Position numbers and translations under genes: made by a program. The notes below the pieces were generated by a model that was given only the letters and a program-made list of their open reading frames with translations, made no database searches and was not told the origin of the DNA. Below are positions 211-64,000 of a stretch of 64,000 nucleotides of DNA, one piece after another. Source of the DNA: Psococerastis gibbosa (Eukaryota; Arthropoda; Insecta; Psocodea; Psocidae); the NCBI GenBank assembly GCA_963971405.1, contig OZ020488.1, positions 44,250,888-44,314,887 on the forward strand. The letters run 5' to 3'. How positions within the stretch are numbered: the first letter of the stretch is position 1; every line of letters starts with the position of its first letter.

Positions 211-666
211 CTGTCTAATATAGAGCCCTAATATACAGTATACATACATAAATATTTCTGTTAAATAATACAATCAAGTAAACAGCAAGTGATTGAAAAG
301 AAAGTATAAAGTAAAATCGTCAAAATCAGGTACTTCTGTCATTGTGCCTCAGTGACCCTACAAGGTCTACCCATTTCCTCGTGTTGTAGGTGTGTGTTTA
401 AATTTCCCCCACACCTCAGGCTAACGTAAATATTACTGTTAGGTACTAGTTATGGAGCCAATGACCGAACCCGACCGGAACTAGACCAAATCTTGATAAC
501 TTAAGGATTAAATTATATAAAAATATAGAATATACCTGTAGTGTATATATGCGCAATCAACAGACGCTGTTCACACCAAAAGCTCTTACAATTCACAGAA
601 CTCTATCAGCATATTTTCGTTAAGTTAATAGTAATTCAGGGGTGGGCCAAAGTCATTCCTATTTTT
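211..666. other. No gene seen
   Basis: AT-rich. A stretch at about 236-335 (AAAGTATAAAGTAAAATCGT) recurs at 31333-31440, so part of this is a dispersed repeat. Nothing else is recognisable. Confidence 0.5.
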
Positions 667-1581
667 GCTTTCCAATTTATACGTAGTATAAGGAAAGCTT
701 TGTGATGGTCGAAATTTTTGATTACGAGATTTCAACGGAATTACACGTTTTGAGGTCCCAGGAACCCAAAAAAAGTGGTTTTTACGAAATGTCAGTCTGT
801 CGCTCTGTCTGTCTGTATGTATGTCTGTCTGTATGTATGTCTGTCTGTCTGTCTGTGCGTCGATTTCAAGGCAAATTACTACTCGGTCGATTTTAATGAA
901 AATTGGCATGTAGGTTCACAAAAATCATACCTCGGGATCATTTTTTTAATTTGGGGCTCACTCAATTTGGGGGGGGGGGGGGGTTTATTCTCAAAAAACT
1001 CCAAAAAAACTTATAAAAAAATTATTTCACAAAAACGGCTCCAACGATTTCTTTTAAATTCACATACAGTATATTGTAGTAGTAATTAATGTTGATAAAA
1101 TGCGGGGGGTCGCTTGCCCCTTGATAGCTTGCTTCTGGGGGTAAAAAAATAAAAATAACTAAATTTTAATGAAAAATGACTAAAAAATAATTTTTCTGCG
1201 AAACGTTTCTATCGATGATTTATACTTTCAGGTATGTTTTAGGTGTTCAATTGGATAACAAAAACGGGCAGGTTGCATTCCCAAACAAATATTTGCTTCT
1301 GTGCAAAAAATTATTTTTTGAGAAATAATGGAAAATTCACGCTCCAATACATTACGAGACATGTGCCATTGTTAATACTGTTACAATGTATTGGTCTGTT
1401 CGTTCCAGAATATGCAATTGAGTTTTAAAGGGCTTTTAATATATATTGAGGTGAACCCCCCCCCCCCTTGAGGGATCTGAAATTTAACCATAGGGAAATT
1501 ATTTCCTATGAAATTACGCATGTCAATATCTACTAATTTATAAATTGGAAAGCATGTCCGAGTAAACTCGGACCGGTTCTT
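667..1581. mobile_element. 0.9 kb element with internal (TCTG)n, copy 1
   Basis: Homologous over its whole length to 50341-51231. The left end is a small palindrome, GCTTTCC to GGAAAGC at 667-698. An inverted copy of GCTTTCCAATTTATA lies at 1539-1553, 28 bp inside the right edge, and the right edge carries a hairpin (CCGAG/CTCGG). A TCTG/TATG microsatellite at about 799-860 is placed identically in both copies, so it belongs to the element. ORFs across it are low-complexity (TDRQ repeats) and not genes. A non-autonomous transposon is the simplest reading; class uncertain. Confidence 0.6.
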
Positions 1582-1931
1582 TAAATTTGTTGTGGTCTCT
1601 TCCCACGTGATTCTCACACCACAAATGTCCCGATCTCTTGCAGCCTCTTCACTCTGTACCTGAATACACCTTAAGCACCTAGAATTGCCTCGCATTTTAC
1701 CTCCGTGACACTGCCCCATGAAGACGTTGTATGTACTCTCTCAGACTCGAGTATTTTCAAAAGTAAACTCTTTCAGGACCGTCCTGGCCTCTCCATTGAT
1801 GGAAAGTATAAGACTTAGACTAAAAGCCTAAACTCAATGTTTCCGGTTTCTGATGTTATTTATGGGCACATCCCATAACACATAACACCTAGGACTAATT
1901 GACTTCGATGGCCAGGTAGTAACGTGTTCGA
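1582..1931. other. No gene seen
   Basis: An ORF of about 110 codons on the minus strand includes a CLRC motif but resembles nothing I can name and has no gene context. Confidence 0.4.
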
Positions 1932-2153
1932 CAAATAAATAAATAGATAAATATTGACTCTTTTTTCTATTACTAAGCCAACGTAGCGGAGTTAGGGCTT
2001 GTAAGCCCTCTCTTACTCTCAACTAGGAAAGCCCGGGACTGCCTGCTTTACATGCCCTCCGAAGCATGACCAGAAATTGCAGCAAGCGTGGGACTCGAAC
2101 CAAAAACCAATCGGGTGAAAGTCGGAGTCTGTACCACTACTCAACATGTCCTG
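1932..2153 (-). mobile_element. tRNA-derived SINE family 1, copy a
   Basis: On the minus strand the head has a pol III A-box-like GAGTAGTGGTACAGACTC and a good B box, GGTTCGAGTCCC, then a family body (CTTCGGAGGGCATGTAAAGC, CCCGGGCTTTCCTAGTTGA) and an AT-rich tail of ATTT repeats at 1932-1955. The spacing of head and body marks it as a tRNA-derived SINE rather than a tRNA gene. Related copies: 3921-4060, 4508-4645, 30743-30943, and a head fragment at 60030-60072. Confidence 0.75.
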
Positions 2154-3170: not shown

Positions 3171-3920
3171 AATACACACAGATATTTTTGTCCAGTCCGT
3201 ACCTGAATTGACGCTGTAACAATTCCAGGTCAATTGTATGGAGTATGCAGGGATTTGGCACATTGTTTATCCAGGCTGCCACTTGAGTTTGGACGAATTA
3301 TACAGGCTTTATTTTACTAAACGGTCGTGTGAGACGCTTAATGATGCCTTCAACTGGTTCAATGAGCAACTCTAGCTTGTGGTTTCTGGTTGTTGTTGTA
3401 GTTTTTTGTCAATCATTGGCATACCAACGTTTGTATGGAGAAGTAGCAAGGTTTTTATGTAGATGCAGTGCCGTATTAACCCATGGGCACAGGCCCACGG
3501 TCCCCACAAAAATGCCTAAAATTCTGGCCCTACAAGTTTTTTGTTTTTTCTTATAAAAATAGAAATAAATTAAAACTTGTAAACAATTTCCAGCAAATTT
3601 TTGAAATTGGCGGGAAATTAAACGTGTTTTTTTTGTTGTTGCTGAAATGTTGGTAGACAGAGTTTGCACCCACAGCCCCCACATATACGCTATATCAGTG
3701 GCGGCTCGTGGTGTATCAAAATGGTGGGGCAACGAATTGTAAACTAGTAATAGCCTATAACTTATACCACTACTTGAATATCAAATAGATTCTTCAGCAT
3801 TTCGATGTGGCAAACAAGTCTTATCACTCGCTGTTTACATTTTTGTAATATTTGTTTACATTGGGAGTTTGAATGCCTGGCCGTTGGGCAGAACTGTGCT
3901 ATATATAGCACTAGTATATA
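3171..3920. other. No gene seen
   Basis: Short unrelated ORFs only. The stretch 3466-3540 (GGCCCACGGTCCCCAC) resembles one near 56769-56812, so it is probably old repeat. At 3697 CAGTGGCGGCTCGTGG looks like a hAT-type terminus, but I found no partner. Confidence 0.4.
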
Positions 3921-4060
3921 CACTTGCTACCGTTTCTGGCCATGCTTCGGAGGGCATGTAAAGCAGGTGGTCCCGGGCTTTCCTATAGTTGAGTGTAAGA
4001 GATAGCCCTAACTCCGCTAGGTTGGCTTAGTAACAGAACAAAATGTCAATATTTATATGG
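3921..4060 (+). mobile_element. SINE family 1, copy b (body and tail)
   Basis: Shares CATGCTTCGGAGGGCATGTA, CCCGGGCTTTCCTA and CTCCGCTAGGTTGGCTTAGT with copy a. The tRNA-like head is missing or unrecognisable, so it is 5'-truncated. Confidence 0.65.
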
Positions 4061-4507
4061 TAAGTAGGGTCATGCTGTAAATATGTACCTAGGTAGAGCT
4101 TCTTTCACCACGTTAAGCTGACTATCTGTGCCTATATATTACTGTCTTGTGTCTACTTTATATTGTACTAACAGGCAGCCTTATGTTTCAATATACTATA
4201 GGACTATATGTATGTTCACCACAGAATGTACCTATACTAGCTGTTTTATTGGTATAAAAAGAAGGAGTCGGTTGTACATAGGTACAGTAGGTTCTCACCT
4301 GTGTCACACCACATTATCCAGGCTTAATTGATCAGGCTGGAACTAATGTTCAGGTTCAACAACGCCCATTCATTCCCTCCAGCGTTATACCGAACACCCT
4401 CATCCTCCAGCCAAGTAGTCTATATTATTGTACTATAGCGAAATTCAGGAATTACATCGTATTAGAGGCCCATTAACGTATTATTGCGTGTGGTAATACA
4501 TATCTTT
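4061..4507. other. No gene seen
   Basis: AT-rich unique-looking sequence with short ORFs; no motif recognised. Confidence 0.4.
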
Positions 4508-4645
4508 TAAATAATAAATAAATAATTACTTTTTGTTGTTATATTACTAAGCCAAGGGCTATGAAGCCCTCTCTTACACTCAACTAAGAAGATCCGGGAC
4601 CGCCTGCTTTGCATGCCATCCGATGTATGGCCTGGAATAGTGCTG
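4508..4645 (-). mobile_element. SINE family 1, copy c
   Basis: On the minus strand it carries a diverged family body (ACTAAGCCAAGGGCT on plus; CGGGACCGCCTGCTTTGCAT). A tRNA-like string, TGTTGGTAGAGAACTAGACT, follows at about 4641 in the opposite sense and may be a separate insertion. Confidence 0.55.
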
Positions 4646-6454: not shown

Positions 6455-7203
6455 GGGGCTGCCTGGCACGTCTCTTAAGACCAGACATTGGAAAAGCGTG
6501 GCAGGAAGACATTTTTGCCGGGTTTGAATGTCCCACCAAAAGAATTCTAGCAAACACAACTTACAACTGAAATTAGAACTTGTTCATTCCCGACCTAAAC
6601 TTCCCGTGGTACCATACCTAGCGAATCTCTGATTCGGTCCTGATATGCGATATGGTCATGTGAGCCCTTTGCAAACTGCCGCCATACAGCTCCATATGAC
6701 GTGCGGCTGCGGGGACAAGGTATAGGAGGTACTTAACGTCCGCTGGCAGATACAATCTGGCTGTAAATAAATTGTTCTCTTATGCACGTCACGATGCGTT
6801 CCCCAGCCTTGCATTGCTCAATGTCTTCATGATGTGGCATGAACCAATGTGCTCGCCTATCTCTGATCCCGGGTTGTGCGCCCTTTTCGATCACTACGAT
6901 GACGATGGTGCTGGGTTAAGTATTTTTCCGTGGGTCTCAGATTGTTCATGTCAAATCGTCGCGGTTTTTATCTAAATATCTAGAGAGTGCAGAGCTGAGG
7001 CGTGAGTTGGATATGTAGAGATATGTCGGTTTGCGATCGGGCCCGGATTGGGATCTGTTGTGTGGAATAAGAATGTCAGACACTGTTGCACCATTTTTTT
7101 TTCACTTCTTCATCTTCTTCTGCTTCTTTTTCTCCTTCTTAATTCTTCCTCGGTGCTACAGCTCGGGATGGACAGTCATCCCTATCTGTCAAGCCACTTT
7201 TCA
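6453..7203. other. No gene seen
   Basis: Relatively GC-balanced sequence with only short ORFs; T-rich (CTTCTT)n run at 7105-7142. No family recognised. Confidence 0.4.
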
Positions 7204-7680
7204 CCTCGTATCTCCAAATAGGCTGCATATACAAGTGGTGAGACCGTGTATGACCTACGGAGCGGAGTGCTGGCCATTGCGGAAGGACGAAGAGCAACTG
7301 CTGCATGTGGCTGAGATGCGAATGTTGCGTTACTGTCTGGGTTACAAATTGGCAGACAGGAGGAGAAACGAGAACATCCGGGTAGAGATGCAAGTAGCAC
7401 CGATCACCGGCAAAGTCAAGGAACGAAGACTGGCGTGGTGGGGCCATACGCTAAAAAGAAAAGATGGACACCTGCTACAGCGTGTGAGGGACTACACGGT
7501 GGAGGGCCCAAGACCTATAGGACGACCGAGGATGTCCCTTGAAACGAAAGTGAGGGAGGACCTCAGGACCCTCGGTCTCTCGCCGGATGAAACGCAAAAC
7601 CGAAACCCCTGGAAGATAAAGATCCGTGCCGCCGACCCCGTGGGAGGGATAAGGCGCCGATAAAGTAAAGTAAGTATCTC
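7204..7680 (+). pseudogene. LINE family C RT C-terminal fragment, open frame
   Basis: Stop-free C-terminus of about 150 residues from a non-LTR retrotransposon polyprotein: RPCMTYGAECWPL, then HVAEMRMLRYCLGY, APITGKVKERRLAWWGHTLK, GPRPIGRPRM and a terminal RAADP. This order is typical of the region after the RT domain in RTE/BovB-like and related LINEs. The RT catalytic core and endonuclease are absent. The stop at about 7661 is followed at once by an AAAGTAAAGTAAGTA tail, so the 3' end looks intact. The open frame suggests a fairly recent copy. Confidence 0.82.
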
Positions 7681-30742: not shown

Positions 30743-30943
30743 GGACATGTCAGAGTAGACTCCAACACTCCCCCGAAAGGTTGTTGGTTCGAGTCCTACA
30801 CTAGCTACATTTTTTGGCCATGCTTCGGAGGGCATGTAAAACAGGCGGTCCCGGGCTTTCCTAGTTGATTCTAAGAGAGAGTTTTATAGCCGAAACTCCG
30901 CTAGGTAGGCTTAGTAATAAAACAAAAGGTCAATTTATTTACT
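30743..30943 (+). mobile_element. SINE family 1, copy d (nearly complete)
   Basis: tRNA-like head with B box GGTTCGAGTCCTAC, then TGCTTCGGAGGGCATGTAAA, CCCGGGCTTTCCTAGTTGA, CTCCGCTAGGTAGGCTTAGT and an ATTT tail. It sits just right of a solitary mariner-like end (30712: AGGGTGTCCCGCG). Confidence 0.75.
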
Positions 30944-31453
30944 TAAGAGAACATACAATAGTATCTAGATTTAGGTCACTCCTAGTTTTACGCTATTTTT
31001 TTCGAGCTACTATTGAGAGAATATGGATCGCAAATTTTGGCGACCCCTGAACCACCCCAAAATTAGTAATTTTCTAATTAAGGCAAGGCAAGTTATTAAT
31101 AGGAAGCTGGCTGTAAACATTTTCTACCCCTGGATCACCCCAAAATAGGTAGATTTATATTTTTTCATTAAGTTATTAAGATTTAAGATTTTACTATCTT
31201 ATAAATTTACTTATATAGGGGGGGGGGGGTCATGACCCCCTGAATCCGCTTGTGTCCGATTGTGCTCATGGAAGAGAATCCTCTACCCAGTTAGGCACAT
31301 AGGTATAGTTAGGCACAAGATTCCTAAATGGCATAAGTACGTGTATAACGGATACAATACAATACAATATACATATTGTATATTTCCGTTAAATTATACA
31401 ATACAATATAAGAAAGTATAAAATAAAATCGTCAAAATCAGGTATTACGAACT
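30944..31453. other. No gene seen
   Basis: 31333-31440 repeats part of 236-335. A G11 run at 31218-31228 precedes GTCATGACCCCCTG. Nothing coding. Confidence 0.4.
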
Positions 31454-49520: not shown

Positions 49521-50340
49521 AGTACTCTCCCCCATTGACTCACTATTCCCATATACTGCTTAGCTCTGCAGCCGCCCACTCTTAATACAATTCCTCATTG
49601 TTAAAAGACTCGGGGAAGTGGCAACGCGTTACCTGTGACGGTTCACTTAAATAGAGCCCCCAGAAAAGAGCTGAAACGCGCCTGAGGGAGTTTTCAATTC
49701 AAAACGACTTCCCCATACAAGAAGATGAGCCCCAGTAAAATAATACACGTAAGATAAAATTAAATCTAAAAACATGCTATATGGGGGGGATTTAAAGCAA
49801 AATTTAAACAGCAAACTCCTCATTTTTCATTAAAATTTCTCCCTCAATATGGCAACCGACTACACACATATAACTTGGCTGACGGGTTTTCTTAAGAGAA
49901 ACATTTCACCGCGTTTCATTTTAATGTGAAGAAATTATTCAGCGGATCATTTTAGACTGTCAGTTTTCATAAGTAAATGTATAAGTTTTCAAGTCATTTA
50001 AACTTTATTTTAGCGTCTCTGGGAAAACAAAGAACATTTACAACATGAGGGGTGGTACGTGAACACTCATCAATCAGGGGTAGCATGTCGTCAGCACGCT
50101 TTTATATGCTGCCATGTCCGTTTTGGATGGTATGGGGGGGGGGGGGGGGGGGGGTTGAGTTCTTCAAGGAACATTGGGTTTATGTTTATGGAGAAATCGT
50201 ACTATTTGTAACATAGTGGCAGTAGGTGATTGGCACTGGCACTACTGAGTAAGTAGAAAACCGAACGATCACTCAAAAACATCATGAGCTTTGGACTCGA
50301 CCGTCCCTTACGGGTATTTCATTTTTAATTTATTATTATT
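49521..50340. other. No gene seen
   Basis: A G22 run lies at 50132-50153. No repeat or ORF of note. Confidence 0.4.
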
Positions 50341-50492
50341 GCTTTCCAATTTATACGTAGTATAAGGAAAGCTTTGTGACGGTCGAAATTTTCGATTCCG
50401 AGATTTCAACGGATTTACACGTTTTGAGGTCCCAGGAACCAAAAAAAGTGGTTTTTACGAAATGTCTGTCTGCCTGTCGTTCGGTCTGTCGT

Positions 50493-50537
<45 letters not shown>

Positions 50538-51231
50538 GCGTCGATTTTCGGGCAAACTACTTGGTCGATCTTGATGAAATGTAGGTTCAAAAAAATCATA
50601 CCTCGGAACAATTTTTTTTATTAGGGGCTAACTTAATTTGGGGGGGTTTTATTCTCAAAAAAACTCCAAAAAAACGTCTAAAAAAATTATTTCTCAAAAA
50701 CGGATCCAACGATTTCTTTTAAATTCACATATATTGTAGTCGTTATTAATATTAACGAAATGCGTGGGGTCGCTTGCCCCATGATAGGTTGCTTCTGGGG
50801 GTAAAAAAATAAAAATAACTAAATTTTAATGGAAAATGACTAAAAAATAATTTTTCTGTGAAACCTTCTACCTTCAGGCATGTTTTAGGTGTTAAATTGA
50901 GTAACGAAACCGGACAGGTTGCTTTTCCAGAAAAGTATTTGGTTTTGTAAAAAAAAATGTTTTTTTTTTTTTTTTTAAATGATCGAAAATTCACGCTCAA
51001 ATGCATTGCGTGCCCTGCCAGTATTGCTGTGTGGTAATGTGTTGGTCTGACCTATCTAGAATTTACCTCACAGCCAGTGACGTCAGGTGGACAACCCCCC
51101 CCCCCCCCCCCCCCCCGAGATATTGGAAATTTAACCATAGGAAAATTATTTACCATGAAATTACTCATTTTCTCTATCTACTAATTTTGATAAATGGGAA
51201 AACATGTTCGAGTAAACTCGGACCGGTTCTT
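50341..51231. mobile_element. 0.9 kb (TCTG)n element, copy 2
   Basis: Aligned end to end with 667-1581: GCTTTCCAATTTATACGTAG at the left, CGAGTAAACTCGGACCGGTT at the right, (TCTG)n at about 50490-50537, poly-G/C and poly-T runs at homologous places. Probably 85% identical. Confidence 0.65.
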
Positions 51232-55764: not shown

Positions 55765-56267
55765 GTTAATATGGCTTTTCCCCTTCTTCTTCTGTAGTTG
55801 CAATCTAGCGATTGGTTTGCAGCAAATCTTTCCACTTCCTTCTCCACTCCTCCCTGTCTTGGGCCGTTCTCTTGAGTTCCAAGTAGGTTCCGCATCTCAT
55901 ATCTTTCTTGAGGTTTTCTGCGTACGCCTTCCTTGGTCGCCCTCTTGCATTGGTGCCTTCGATTGTGCCTTCTATTATGGTGCTTAAGAGTCCTTCCTGT
56001 CTGATCAGGTGACCCATCCATTTTGCTCTTCTCACCGAAATGGAGGCAATTAGGTATCTTTTATCATTTATCCTTTGAAGTACCTCTTCATTCGTTATGC
56101 GGTCTCTCCAAGATATTTTCATCATTCCCCTATAGCTCCACATTTCGAAAGCCTCCAGCTTCTTTTTGCTTCTTTCGTGTATGCACCATGTCTCACAGCC
56201 ATAAGGCAGTATCCTCCATACTAGTGATTTAAGCAGTCTTTTCCCCTTCAGTTTGTCTCATATGAGT
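55765..56267 (-). pseudogene. LINE family A RT C-terminus, best-preserved copy
   Basis: About 155 codons open on the minus strand. In order: VWRILPYGCETW, ERSKKKLEAFEMWSYRGMMK, ISWRDRITNEEVLQRINDKR, SVRRAKWMGHLIRQ, TNARGRPRKAYAENLKKDM, LELKRTAQDREEWRRKWKDL, stop, then a GAAGAAGAAG-like tail. This is the standard module after the RT palm and thumb in several LINE clades; RT catalytic motifs and endonuclease lie upstream and are missing, with a stop at about 56268. It was transcribed and inserted as a 5'-truncated copy. Confidence 0.85.
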
Positions 56268-60029: not shown

Positions 60030-60072
60030 AGAGTAGTGGTACAGACTCTGACTTTCACCGGAAAGGTTAGTA
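60030..60072 (+). mobile_element. SINE family 1 head fragment
   Basis: GAGTAGTGGTACAGACTCTG and ACTTTCACCGGAAAGGTTAG match the tRNA-like head of 1932-2153 (minus strand). No body follows. Confidence 0.55.
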
Positions 60073-60372
60073 GAGTAGAAAGGGGGTTTCTGGCGCTTAT
60101 CCCACCCCCCGTCGTGCTATCCCATCTATCCCCCGCGGGTGGTCTATCTATTTTTGTGTGTTACCCCTCGTGGGTGGTCTGAGGTTCTGGCGCTTACCCC
60201 CCCCCGTCGAGCTACCCCATCTACCCCACCCCCCGTCATGCTACCCCTCGTGGGTGGTCTGAGGTTCTGGCGCTTATCCCCCCCCCCCATCGAGACCCGT
60301 GGGTGGTCTTTCTATGGCACTATGATTGTTTTTTTTTTGTATAATTACTAATTTGTGAGACACAGAGTTATA

Positions 60373-60417
<45 letters not shown>

Positions 60418-60666
60418 GGTGTTAATTGAATTAAAACGGGACTTACCCCACCCCCCCGTCGAGCTATCCCATCTACCCATCATGCTACCCCTCGTGGGTG
60501 GTCTGAGGTTCTGGCGCTTACCCCACCCCCCGTCGAGCTACCCCTCGTGGGTGGTCTGAGGTTCTGGCGCTTATCCCCCCCGTCGTGACCCGTGGGTGGT
60601 CTTTCTATGGCACCATGATCGTTTTTTTTTTTTTTTATAATTACTAATTTGTGAGATAGAGTTATA

Positions 60667-60697
<31 letters not shown>

Positions 60698-60790
60698 TTT
60701 TTATGGTGTAATTGAATTAAAACATTTCTTTCTTCTTCTTCTTTCTTCTTCGTGGGTGGTCTTTCTATGGCACTATGATTGTTTTTTTTT
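60073..60790. repeat. Composite tandem repeat, GTGGGTGGTC array
   Basis: CTCGTGGGTGGTCTGAGGTT, CTGGCGCTTA, CCCC runs and GTCGAGCTACCCCATCTACC alternate at least five times. Two larger units of about 300 bp (around 60235-60425 and 60540-60725) share GTGGGTGGTCTTTCTATGGC, GTATAATTACTAATTTGTGA, poly-T and TAATTGAATTAAAAC. Poly-T at about 60373-60414 and (TA)n at 60664-60690. Confidence 0.82.
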
Positions 60791-60800
60791 TATAACCCAG

Positions 60801-61125
60801 GTAAACATAAGCTAAATATAGGCCTAGACACCCGTAGTATTTAAAAACCTTAAAATAAATTAATATAAATTTTTTTTTTATCAGCTATATTTACATCGAT
60901 GAACACGCTTGAGCTAATGCATAATGTTTAGTACACTACATTGAGTAAACATAAGCTAAATATAGACGCCCATAGTATTTAAAGACCGTAAAATAAATTA
61001 ATATAAGTTTTTTCTTAATTATTTATTATCAGCTAAATTTACATCGATGACCACGCTTGAGCTAATGCATAATGTTAAGTACACTACAATAAGTAAACAT
61101 AAGCTAAATATAGACACCCATAGTA
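60801..61125. repeat. About 146 bp tandem array, left copy
   Basis: GTAAACATAAGCTAAATATA starts units at 60801, 60945 and 61093 (spacing 144, 148). Each unit includes ACCCATAGTATTTAAA, AAAATAAATTAATATAA, TTTACATCGATGA-CACGCTT and GAGCTAATGCATAATGTT. The same array is present in reverse orientation at 63786-64000. Confidence 0.85.
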
Positions 61126-61489
61126 TGGCACTGGCTATGGCACACTTATTCTCCGAAATATGCTATGAACTCAATGGAATAACTGTTGATCATGTGCGAA
61201 ACCCTGTGCGAATGATTTCTTCAAGTGAAAAACCACGGTTTGCTATTATTGGCTTCCAAGCAGCACGAGCAGATGATATTTGAAAGACGCTACTGCCTTC
61301 GATCAATGTGCTGTACGACAAATGCAACTATTCCTCGGCTCAGAATGCTATCCATACCATCCGCTACAGGCGAACTTCAACAAAAAGGTTGTTGCTGTAT
61401 TGTATGAACATTTTCTCAATTTCCGGAAACAATACTACATGCAGGATGAAGCATCCCCGAACGTTTCCCGGGTCATTATCGCATTATAG
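61107..61489 (+). pseudogene. Broken double-jelly-roll major capsid protein fragment, Polinton/adintovirus-like
   Basis: Two frames carry one degraded protein. The first (ATG 61125 or upstream to the stop at 61281) has YELNGITVDHVRNP and SSEKPRFAIIGFQAARADD. After a frame change near 61280 the second runs to the stop at 61487-61489 with DATAFDQCAVRQMQLFLGSE, CYPYHPLQANFN and LYEHFLNFRKQYY. These blocks match my recollection of insect-genome proteins annotated with a double-jelly-roll domain, the major capsid protein of Polinton/Maverick elements and adintoviruses. From memory of the family, the N-terminal block and the PRF-IIGFQ block are normally far apart, so an internal deletion is likely besides the frameshift; the C-terminus is also missing. 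Not functional. It lies at the inner edge of an inverted tandem array. Alternative: an unrelated mobile-element protein. Confidence 0.55.
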
Positions 61490-61742
61490 ATATGTCTTAG
61501 GTTTAAAAGTTTGTTTTAAGTGATTGTATGTAAAGACATTGATTTCTTTTAAAATATGTGTATTATAAAATTTGTATATCATAAAATGGTTTACATTCGT
61601 TTAGCTCATGGTCATTATTGTATTATAGATAAGTCTTAGGCTTAAAAGCTTGTTTTAAGTGATTGTATGAAAAGACATTGATTTCTTTTAAAATATGTGT
61701 ATTATAAAATTTGTATATCATAAAATGGTTTACATTCATTTA
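61481..61742. repeat. 129 bp direct duplication
   Basis: GGTCATTAT(C/T)G-CATTATAGATA, then TTGTTTTAAGTGATTGTATG and AATATGTGTATTATAAAATT, begin at 61481 and 61610; only about 8 differences. The first unit contains the stop of the capsid fragment. Confidence 0.85.
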
Positions 61743-61935
61743 CAATAGTTGATGTACAATACCAGTTAAAGGTACATATTCATATAAGCAGTCGCTGATG
61801 AGTAGACAGTCCCTTTATTTGCCATGCAGACAACCCTTTATATATTGGAGTGCATAAGGTCGGTGGCCATTTCAGTCCCCCTCGCATTAAGATTATGACA
61901 CATCGCTATTAATTCAGGTACGCCGATATAATAAG

Positions 61936-63664
61936 TGCACTCAGCATCTTAAAAGAAATGTATTAATCCCACAATAGGTGTTCAATATACCCACCAGCCG
62001 TGTTTATAAAAATGAATTTTCAATAATCCCAACTAAGTCTCAGTTTCTCACAATAGGTGTGCAATATACCAGGCAGTCGTGTTTTCTATGTTAGATTTAG
62101 TTACATTGGGCTAGGACAGGTTAAGTTATAATATTAGGCTAGGTTAAATTTTTATATCAAGTTAGGGATAGGTTACATTGGATTAGGATAGGCCAGATTA
62201 GGTTACATTGGGTTAGGTTAGCTGTTTACCTAGATTAAATTCATCATTTTTTTAACAAAAATATTTTTATATCAAATAAATATGATGTTAAGTTAGGTTA
62301 CATTGAATTAGGATAGGTTAGATTAGGTTACATTGGATTAGGATAGGCCAGATTACGTTACATTGGGTTAGGTTAGCTGTTTACCTAGATTAAATTCATC
62401 ATTTTTTTAACAAAAATATTTTTATATCAAATAAATATGATGTTAAGTTAGGTTACATTGAATTAGGATAGGTTAGATTAGGTTACATTGGGTGCAATAT
62501 ACCAGGCAGTCGTGTTTTCTATGTTAGATTTAGTTACATTGGGCTAGGACAGGTTAAGTTATAATATTAGGCTAGGTTAAATTTTTATATCAAGTTAGGG
62601 TAGGTTACTTTGGATTAGGATAGGCCAGATTAGGTTACATTGGGTTAGGTTAGCTGTTTACCTAGATTAAATTCATCATTTTTTTTTTTAACAAAAATAT
62701 TTTTTATATCAAATAAATATAATGTTAAGTTAGGTTACATTGAATTAGGATAGGTTAGATTAGGTTACATTGGATTAGGATAGGCCAGATTAGGTTACAT
62801 TGGATTAGGTTAGCTGTTTACCTAGATTACATTCATCATTTTTGTTAAAAAAAAAAATGATGAATTTAATCTAGGTAAACAGCTAACCTAACCCAATGTA
62901 ACCTAATCTGGCCTATCCTAATCCAAAGTAACCTACCCTAACTTGATATAAAAATTTAACCTAGCCTAATATTATAACTTAACCTGTCCTAGCCCAATGT
63001 AACTAAATCTAACATAGAAAACACGACTGCCTGGTATATTGCACCCAATGTAACCTAATCTAACCTATCCTAATTCAATGTAACCTAACTTAACATCATA
63101 TTTATTTGATATAAAAATATTTTTGTTAAAAAAATGATGAATTTAATCTAGGTAAACAGCTAACCTAACCCAATGTAACGTAATCTGGCCTATCCTAATC
63201 CAATGTAACCTAATCTAACCTATTATTAATGGCTTGTTTGTGGCTAACTCAACCTATCCTTACCCAATGTAACCTAATCTAACCTATCCTAATTCAATGT
63301 AACCTAACTTAACATCATATTTATTTGATATAAAAATATTTTTGTTAAAAAAAATGATGAATTTAATCTAGGTAAACAGCTAACCTAACCCAATGTAACC
63401 TAATCTGGCCTATCCTAATCCAATGTAACCTACCCTAACTTGATATAAAAATTTAACCTAGCCTAATATTATAACTTAACCTGTCCTAGCCCAATGTAAC
63501 TAAATCTAACATAGAAAACACGACTGCCTGGTATATTGCACACCCATTGTGAGAAACTGAGACTTAGTTGGGATTATTGAAAATTCATTTTTATAAACAT
63601 GGCTGGTGGGTATATTGAACACCTATTGTGGGATTAATACATTTCTTTTAAGATACTGAGTGCA
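61936..63664. repeat. 1.73 kb near-palindrome
   Basis: Left outer edge TGCACTCAGCATCTTAAAAG faces right CTTTTAAGATACTGAGTGCA. CTCAGTTTCTCACAATAGGT faces ATTGTGAGAAACTGAG; the turning point is near 62846 (CATCATTTTTGTTAAAAAAA). Arms of about 910 and 815 bp differ by inserted or deleted subrepeats. The inner part consists of AGGTTACATTGGGTTAGGTT-type words and the block GCTGTTTACCTAGATTAAAT repeated several times per arm. TTAGG words are frequent but not in tandem register, so it is not a plain insect telomere repeat. Confidence 0.88.
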
Positions 63665-63785
63665 ACGCCGAGTCCCACCCTTACCGTCTATCATTCGTGG
63701 GTAGTCCACTGTTTCAAATTAGGTAATTAATATGTGCATTATTCAATGGCGCTCACCCTCACTGGTCTATCTATCCCTGTCTCCC

Positions 63786-64000
63786 ATTAGCTCAAGCGTG
63801 TTCGTCGATGTAAATGTAGCTGATAAAAAATTAATAAGAAAAAACTTATATTAATTTATTTTAAGATTTTTAAATACTATGGGTGTCTATATTTAGCTTA
63901 TGTTTACTCAATGTAGTGTACTAAACATTATGCATTAGCTCAAGCGTGTTCATCGATGTAAATGTAGCTGATAAAAAAAATTAATAAGAAAAAACTTATA
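63786..64000. repeat. About 146 bp tandem array, right inverted copy, cut by window end
   Basis: ATTAGCTCAAGCGTGTTCGT, ACATTTACATCGA on the minus strand, and TTTAGCTTATGTTTACTCAA are the reverse complement of 60801-61125. Units start at 63786 and 63934. It continues past base 64000. Confidence 0.85.

What the first reader, a model, noticed from the sequence alone, without database searches (positions are those of the whole stretch)
61107..61489. Polinton/adintovirus-type capsid relic between inverted arrays
Seen: a protein-like stretch in two frames (ELNGITVDHVRNP; EKPRFAIIGFQAAR; ECYPYHPLQANF), truncated and frameshifted, placed just inside a tandem array that recurs inverted 2.7 kb away. 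Known: Polintons/Mavericks and adintoviruses encode a double-jelly-roll major capsid protein and have terminal inverted repeats. Inferred: an eroded endogenous viral element whose ends have become satellite-like. No polymerase or integrase remnant is visible in the window.
Basis: partly seen in the sequence, partly recalled or inferred. Interest (0 to 1): 0.88.

Follow-up and report, generated by a model that had tools for sequence, protein, structure and literature searches.

The report
Mass-copied palindromic fragments of Polinton virus
The broken capsid gene is real and comes from a Polinton (a virus-like jumping DNA), but it did not simply rot in place: the same break is found in over a hundred other spots of this genome, often in mirror-image pairs inside elements that seem to ride on intact, recently active Polintons.

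Summary
Confirmed: window 61128-61471 encodes pieces of a double-jelly-roll major capsid protein (PF21738, E 9.5e-13 and 1.7e-4). They lie in a 5,167-bp element from window 60069 to 1,235 bases past the window, with Polinton-type ends; the inverted arrays are its terminal repeats. The host genome (409 Mb, unnamed) has at least 126 capsid matches, in the loci read from two young lineages. Lineage A is about 14.18 kb when full-length, with 6-bp target duplications in 10 of 10 near-full copies checked, and encodes polymerase, rve integrase, ATPase, PLA2-like protein, penton and capsid. Against decay in place, the capsid deletion junction recurs at 136 places; of 100 listed, 58 form 29 close pairs, all inverted, and 42 are unpaired. 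Two such elements carry window-type ends and perfect 6-bp duplications. In four elements the arms show 0 substitutions over an outer 1,500 bp, while 51 comparisons between elements give 1-133. Best reading: a non-autonomous, snap-back-type Polinton derivative mobilised in trans; the window copy is a further deleted one. The palindrome mechanism is inferred; gene conversion is the main rival. New variant of a known kind.

The parts
60069..60760 (+). left terminal inverted repeat, outer part: terminus AGTAGAGTAGAAAGGGGGTTTCTGG and C-rich minisatellite
   Evidence: mirrored at L037:648-1235 (92%); window-type terminus at 335 places of the genome with up to 1 mismatch, control 0
60801..61126 (+). 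148-bp tandem units of the left terminal repeat
61128..61205 (+). capsid fragment, residues 85-110 of the 409-aa capsid
   Evidence: (E 1.4e-9); in 11 of 11 other loci the shared sequence on the inner side begins at 61134; the window's join there occurs at 1 place
61203..61280 (+). capsid fragment, residues 253-278; internal deletion before it, stop after it
   Evidence: deletion junction at 136 places
61283..61471 (+). capsid fragment, residues 280-342, other frame
   Evidence: 82.5% identity; E 9.5e-13
61471..61742 (+). 139-bp sequence in two copies, related to the 3' flank of the capsid gene
   Evidence: 79-85% to L001:1223-1520
61746..61808 (-). capsid C-terminal residues 388-408, inverted
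   Evidence: E 2.7e-8, 21 of 21 identical
61936..63664 (.). inner minisatellite palindrome, main arms 94-100% complementary
   Evidence: pairs I1, I2, I3
63785..64000 (-). 148-bp units of the right terminal repeat, continuing past the window to L037:1235 (window-equivalent 65235)
   Evidence: pair I4, (C13:44316122)

Best explanation
The window holds a 5.17-kb non-autonomous Polinton, a deletion product of a family of large palindromic Polinton derivatives. Shown: in the arm pieces read, only pieces of the polymerase-side half of a Polinton (PolB and capsid fragments) were found, in mirror image around a spacer; two of these elements carry the terminus also found on a full lineage-B copy at both ends, with 6-bp target duplications. 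Shown over the stretches compared: arms inside one element match while elements differ. Inferred: a displaced single strand folded back during protein-primed replication and was copied into a hairpin, so both ends became the same terminus and each replication round re-copies one arm from the other; enzymes of intact lineages replicate and integrate it in trans. Inferred: the window copy later lost about 4 kb of its left arm and the inner right arm, perhaps by recombination between two elements, which would explain its missing target duplication.
For: Capsid identity: and for a homologue (P0001) the fold (PBCV-1, Sputnik, mavirus capsids). Intact relatives: 126 scored of 486 candidates, all over the cut-off; two of them have a stop inside; gene set; 20 of 46 listed end pairs of type A lie 14.0-14.45 kb apart; 6-bp duplications in 10 of 10 near-full copies. 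Capsid between lineages A and B: dN/dS 0.145. Broken piece amplified: 40 scored of 308 candidates, 39 besides the window; junction 136 places, control 0; 29 of 29 pairs closer than 6 kb are inverted. Arms: over the outer 1,500 bp, which was not chosen on identity, 0 substitutions in 4 of 4 elements against 1-133 (median 9) in 51 between-element comparisons, none of them zero; private columns 12 in both arms, 0 in one. In one element a further 2,600 bp: 0 mismatches, 1 gap. Arm pieces hold PolB and capsid fragments, nothing from the integrase side (L035:1-5200) in 3 of 3 pieces. Termini and duplications: C20:18115730-18128835 and C20:2302815-2316632. Control: lineage-A terminal repeats differ by 12-25 bases in about 900-950 within 4 of 4 copies; three elements with window-type ends show 1-5 within and 0-5 between.
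Against: Arm identity could also come from gene conversion after insertion: arms lie about 1-5 kb apart, intact terminal repeats about 12 kb, so the control is not matched for distance. Of the three elements in the window-type control only one is known to be lineage B; one (contig C21) lies beyond the listed junctions and could itself be palindromic, and its ends differ by 2 substitutions. A first, wider arm comparison ran past the arm ends: 20 private columns in both arms and 225 in one (220 of these in L074/L075), and 4 substitutions in L072/L073, 9 in L077/L078, 0 in L079/L080; the limit of 780 bp used was set inside the shortest exact run, so identity of that inner part is partly by choice. 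10 of the 12 private columns belong to one element. 2 indel events separate the arms of L077/L078. 42 of 100 listed junctions are unpaired. 4 of 10 window-type end pairs lack a target duplication, and so does the window copy. Trans-mobilisation is not observed. Integrase intactness in lineage B was not tested (search unanswered).
Confidence: 0.64

Rival explanations
1. The palindrome arose once, spread as an ordinary non-autonomous Polinton, and its arms are kept identical by gene conversion in the chromosome.
For: Paired junctions are close (median 2,738 bp), which favours conversion; arms match within elements.
Against: Terminal repeats of lineage-A copies are not homogenised, though they lie farther apart. 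Copies look young, leaving little time (inference).
Confidence: 0.27
2. A single eroded endogenous virus whose ends became satellite-like.
For: Truncation and frameshift are real; the window's own join at 61134 occurs once.
Against: The same broken piece at 39 further scored places, junction at 136 places.
Confidence: 0.03
3. An unrelated fold-back transposon captured a capsid fragment.
For: Minisatellite-rich inverted repeats resemble fold-back elements (recalled).
Against: Termini are those of a full lineage-B copy, with 6-bp duplications, and PolB fragments are present too.
Confidence: 0.03
4. The palindromes are assembly artefacts of fold-back reads.
For: Long-read libraries can make false inverted duplications (recalled).
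Against: 29 pairs among 100 listed junctions have one orientation at different loci with different spacings; two checked ones have perfect target duplications.
Confidence: 0.03

Closest known systems
Polinton / Maverick
   Same: PolB, rve integrase, A32/FtsK-type ATPase, weak adenain-like protease, DJR capsid, penton-like minor capsid, terminal inverted repeats, 6-bp target duplications
   Different: full lineage-A copies are about 14.18 kb, slightly under the 15-20 kb given in PMC4028283 (passage); the window element is non-autonomous and its relatives are palindromic
Adintovirus
   Same: PolB plus rve integrase plus hexon- and penton-type proteins in an animal genome
   Different: no OTU-like domain and no chromodomain found by Pfam at E up to 1
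AAV snapback defective genomes (PMC8235507, abstract and outline seen)
   Same: inverted duplication of one end of a linear virus genome carrying gene pieces
   Different: those are packaged parvovirus genomes; these are integrated, multi-copy, and derive from an element with its own PolB
MITEs and fold-back elements (recalled)
   Same: non-autonomous, inverted repeats, amplified
   Different: 13-kb size in the two measured copies, Polinton termini, viral gene pieces in the arms

Membership tests
Polinton/Maverick (intact relatives in this genome) | double-jelly-roll major capsid | tested here: met
   PF21738 E 2e-92; predicted fold of homologue P0001
Polinton/Maverick (intact relatives in this genome) | type B DNA polymerase | tested here: met
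   by homology: 405 relatives of the 956-aa piece, 4 of the 120 listed with PF03175 precomputed; motif TDTDS in the other piece. Pfam gave no PF03175 hit on the two pieces themselves
Polinton/Maverick (intact relatives in this genome) | rve integrase | tested here: met
   PF00665 E 6.9e-10, 39.5 bits over cut-off 32.6
Polinton/Maverick (intact relatives in this genome) | FtsK/A32 packaging ATPase | tested here: met
   PF04665 E 8.5e-9, 35.7 bits over cut-off 22.8
Polinton/Maverick (intact relatives in this genome) | cysteine protease | tested here: inconclusive
   PF00770 E 0.04, below cut-off, on a frame cut by the end of the locus
Polinton/Maverick (intact relatives in this genome) | penton-type minor capsid | tested here: met
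   homologue P0241 (48% identical) is predicted to fold like mavirus penton, Foldseek E 3.1e-11
Polinton/Maverick (intact relatives in this genome) | terminal inverted repeats and 6-bp target duplication | tested here: met
   repeats of about 920 bp; 10 of 10 near-full copies
Polinton/Maverick (window element) | Polinton termini | tested here: met
   both ends
Polinton/Maverick (window element) | 6-bp target duplication | tested here: not met
   AAGGTT against CCCTTA
Adintovirus (strict) | PolB with N-terminal OTU-like domain | tested here: not met
   Pfam lists no OTU family at E up to 1; structure not tested
Snap-back derivative | both arms from one end of the parent, identical within an element | tested here: inconclusive
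   supporting; but arms were read only in part (outer about 1.2 kb of C20:18115730 unread except the last 40 bp), and small differences appear near the spacer
Snap-back derivative | free hairpin replication intermediate | not testable with these tools
   needs extrachromosomal DNA

The most novel reading that the evidence does not exclude
The palindromic copies act as natural hairpin-RNA loci: a transcript through an arm and its mirror would fold into long double-stranded RNA carrying polymerase and capsid sequence, feeding small RNAs that hold the intact Polintons down. They would be both a replication satellite and a silencer of the virus that moves them. In one inner arm piece (L075) 596 of 2,293 21-mers match the central 3.9 kb of lineage B exactly and 194 of 2,293 match lineage A; in the outer piece L082 54 and 17 of 2,580 do. 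No transcription or small-RNA evidence was available.
Probability: 0.15. Interest if true: 0.87.

Novelty: new variant of a known kind. Interest (0 to 1): 0.61.

Why it matters
Polintons are thought to be integrated viruses, but how animal ones replicate is hardly observed (recalled). A family of young palindromic derivatives, with arms alike within a copy and different between copies, may be a footprint of the replication route and makes it testable from genome data. It also gives a candidate Polinton satellite, comparable to defective genomes of adeno-associated virus, and a possible RNA-silencing source against Polintons. The listings of ten paper searches showed me no title or abstract start on non-autonomous or palindromic Polintons; only the last asked for such phrases directly and returned 0 papers. 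Bodies were seen only as passages of a few papers. Most subscription papers are not in the library and Repbase was not searched.

Tried and rejected
PHROGs with the two frames and the solved-structure sequences with the second frame gave nothing significant. A viral-contig scan gave no relative. The strict adintovirus label was rejected for want of an OTU-like domain. An early guess that some palindromes span 9.5 kb was dropped for C13:10536183, whose partner lies 2.6 kb away. A first arm alignment reaching into the spacer was replaced; its result is told under evidence against. A search for integrase copies in the host genome did not complete. The host species was not identified. Kapitonov and Jurka 2006 and Starrett 2021 were not held.

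Full report
What is there. The two frames at window 61002-61486 were searched apart. Both hit the Pfam double-jelly-roll family PF21738, the second well over its cut-off, the first below it. Against a 409-aa capsid of the same genome the window shows residues 85-110, 253-278, 280-342 and, inverted, 388-408; of nine lineage-A frames compared, no other gives a match better than E 0.37.

The element. Window 60069 begins AGTAGAGTAGAAAGGGGG, the end of intact Polintons of this genome. The mirror end lies at L037:1235, 1,235 bases past the window (C13:44310956 to 44316122). The element is thus 5,167 bp and the arrays are its terminal repeats. Its flanking 6-mers differ, AAGGTT and CCCTTA.

The intact relatives. 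The host assembly has 409,210,807 bases in 68 contigs. PF21738 gave 486 candidates, of which 126 were scored and all 126 passed the cut-off; 40 share the top score and two have a stop inside. Of 41 loci read, 40 have the 409-aa frame. Among them are two lineages, A and B, about 7.2% apart in the capsid gene, with dN/dS 0.145 (55.5 synonymous and 32.5 non-synonymous changes), so the protein was under selection while they diverged. Within A the capsid gene differs by 0.10% on average (435 pairs of 30 loci), within B by 0.29% (36 pairs; 9 of 11 loci used, L063 being broken and L068 double). 30 of 30 A loci are at least 99.5% identical to L001 over their aligned 3.1-3.9 kb. A-type ends occur at 116 places, control 0. 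Of 100 listed, 46 pairs form; 20 of these are 14.0-14.45 kb long, the other 26 range from 5.8 to 19.0 kb, so many copies are deleted or interrupted. Ten near-full ones were checked and 10 of 10 have perfect 6-bp target duplications. Genes: polymerase (homologues), capsid, penton (fold of homologue P0241), PLA2-like, ATPase, integrase, and a doubtful protease. These are Polintons that spread recently.

The broken piece is amplified. A search with window 61127-61489 gave 308 candidates; of the 40 scored, 39 besides the window match 356 bases, printed as 100% (34 with the full score, 5 slightly lower). The internal deletion junction is found at 136 places with up to 1 mismatch, control 0. The first 100 were listed, all without mismatch: 29 adjacent pairs closer than 6 kb, all 29 inverted and facing each other; the other 42 places, the window among them, are unpaired at that distance. 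So the damage came before the spread.

Palindromic elements. In C20:18115730-18128835 (13,106 bp) the relic lies 5,270 and 5,273 bp from the two ends. Both ends bear the window-type terminus and the flanks repeat GTAGTT. C20:2302815-2316632 has its junctions at matching distances and repeats TACGGA; its arms were not read. Of ten window-type end pairs checked, 6 have a perfect duplication. The same terminus bounds C2:34419564-34433849, which holds a lineage-B capsid. In the arm pieces read, polymerase and capsid fragments were found and nothing from the integrase side of lineage A; the capsid block is turned round relative to the polymerase. Outside the relic the window copy departs from 11 of 11 other loci at 61134, and that join occurs once, so the window copy is a further deletion.

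Arms. Four elements had both arms in hand. Over the outer 1,500 bp they show 0 substitutions (2 indel events in one), against 1-133 (median 9, mean 29.7) in 51 comparisons between elements. Columns private to one element: 12 in both arms (10 of them in one element), 0 in one arm only. The 356-bp relic itself does not vary and says nothing. With the inner 780 bp added the result is alike, but that limit was set inside the shortest exact run; farther in, toward the spacer, one search shows 4 substitutions in L072/L073, 9 in L077/L078, 0 in L079/L080, and no alignable arm in L074/L075. One element was extended outward by 2,600 bp: 0 mismatches, 1 gap. As controls, the terminal repeats of 4 lineage-A copies differ inside a copy by 12-25 bases, while ends of different copies differ by 1-33; three elements with window-type ends show 1-5 inside and 0-5 between, but only one of the three is known to be lineage B and one could be palindromic.

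How it works. Termini and duplications indicate that the palindromes insert as units by a Polinton-type integrase (two elements). That the enzymes come from intact lineages is inferred. One strand folding back during protein-primed strand-displacement replication would give mirror copies of one end, with arms re-copied from each other; this is the step I think most likely, at about even odds against all else, with gene conversion next. An analogous configuration is described for AAV defective genomes (PMC8235507, abstract).

Function, bold reading. Exact 21-mers shared with the intact lineages (596 of 2,293 with B, 194 of 2,293 with A in the inner arm; 54 and 17 of 2,580 in the outer) would let hairpin transcripts silence them. 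Untested.

Naming. By the definition quoted in PMC11071296 (passages) this is not a strict adintovirus. Polinton/Maverick fits (PMC4028283, passage).

Noticed in passing
L031:4492-4707; window 1936-2151, 30758-30945, 3919-4056, 4506-4632: A repeat of about 216 bp inside the lineage-A terminal repeat is also scattered in the window at 79-89% identity, like a MITE that landed in a viral terminal repeat.
   Followed up: no
window 662-1601 and 50336-51231: A repeat of about 900 bp with TGTC microsatellite, 78-83% similar to DNA flanking one Polinton copy.
   Followed up: no
window 55805-56257 (-) and 7019-7663 (+): Open frames that look like non-LTR retrotransposon endings (label recalled, frames).
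   Followed up: no
G000 C19:24992615-24995221 (L068): Two capsid genes in tandem on one strand.
   Followed up: no
L035:1-747 (-): A PLA2-like domain beside the structural genes of lineage A (E 8.7e-14).
   Followed up: partly
L031:5131-7998 (+): The polymerase frame carries weak C2H2 zinc-finger and endonuclease VII matches; some spider and mollusc relatives list the same domains.
   Followed up: partly
G000, A-type end pairs: 26 of 46 listed pairs of lineage-A ends are shorter or longer than the full element, 5.8-19.0 kb, so deletion derivatives of A are common too.
   Followed up: no
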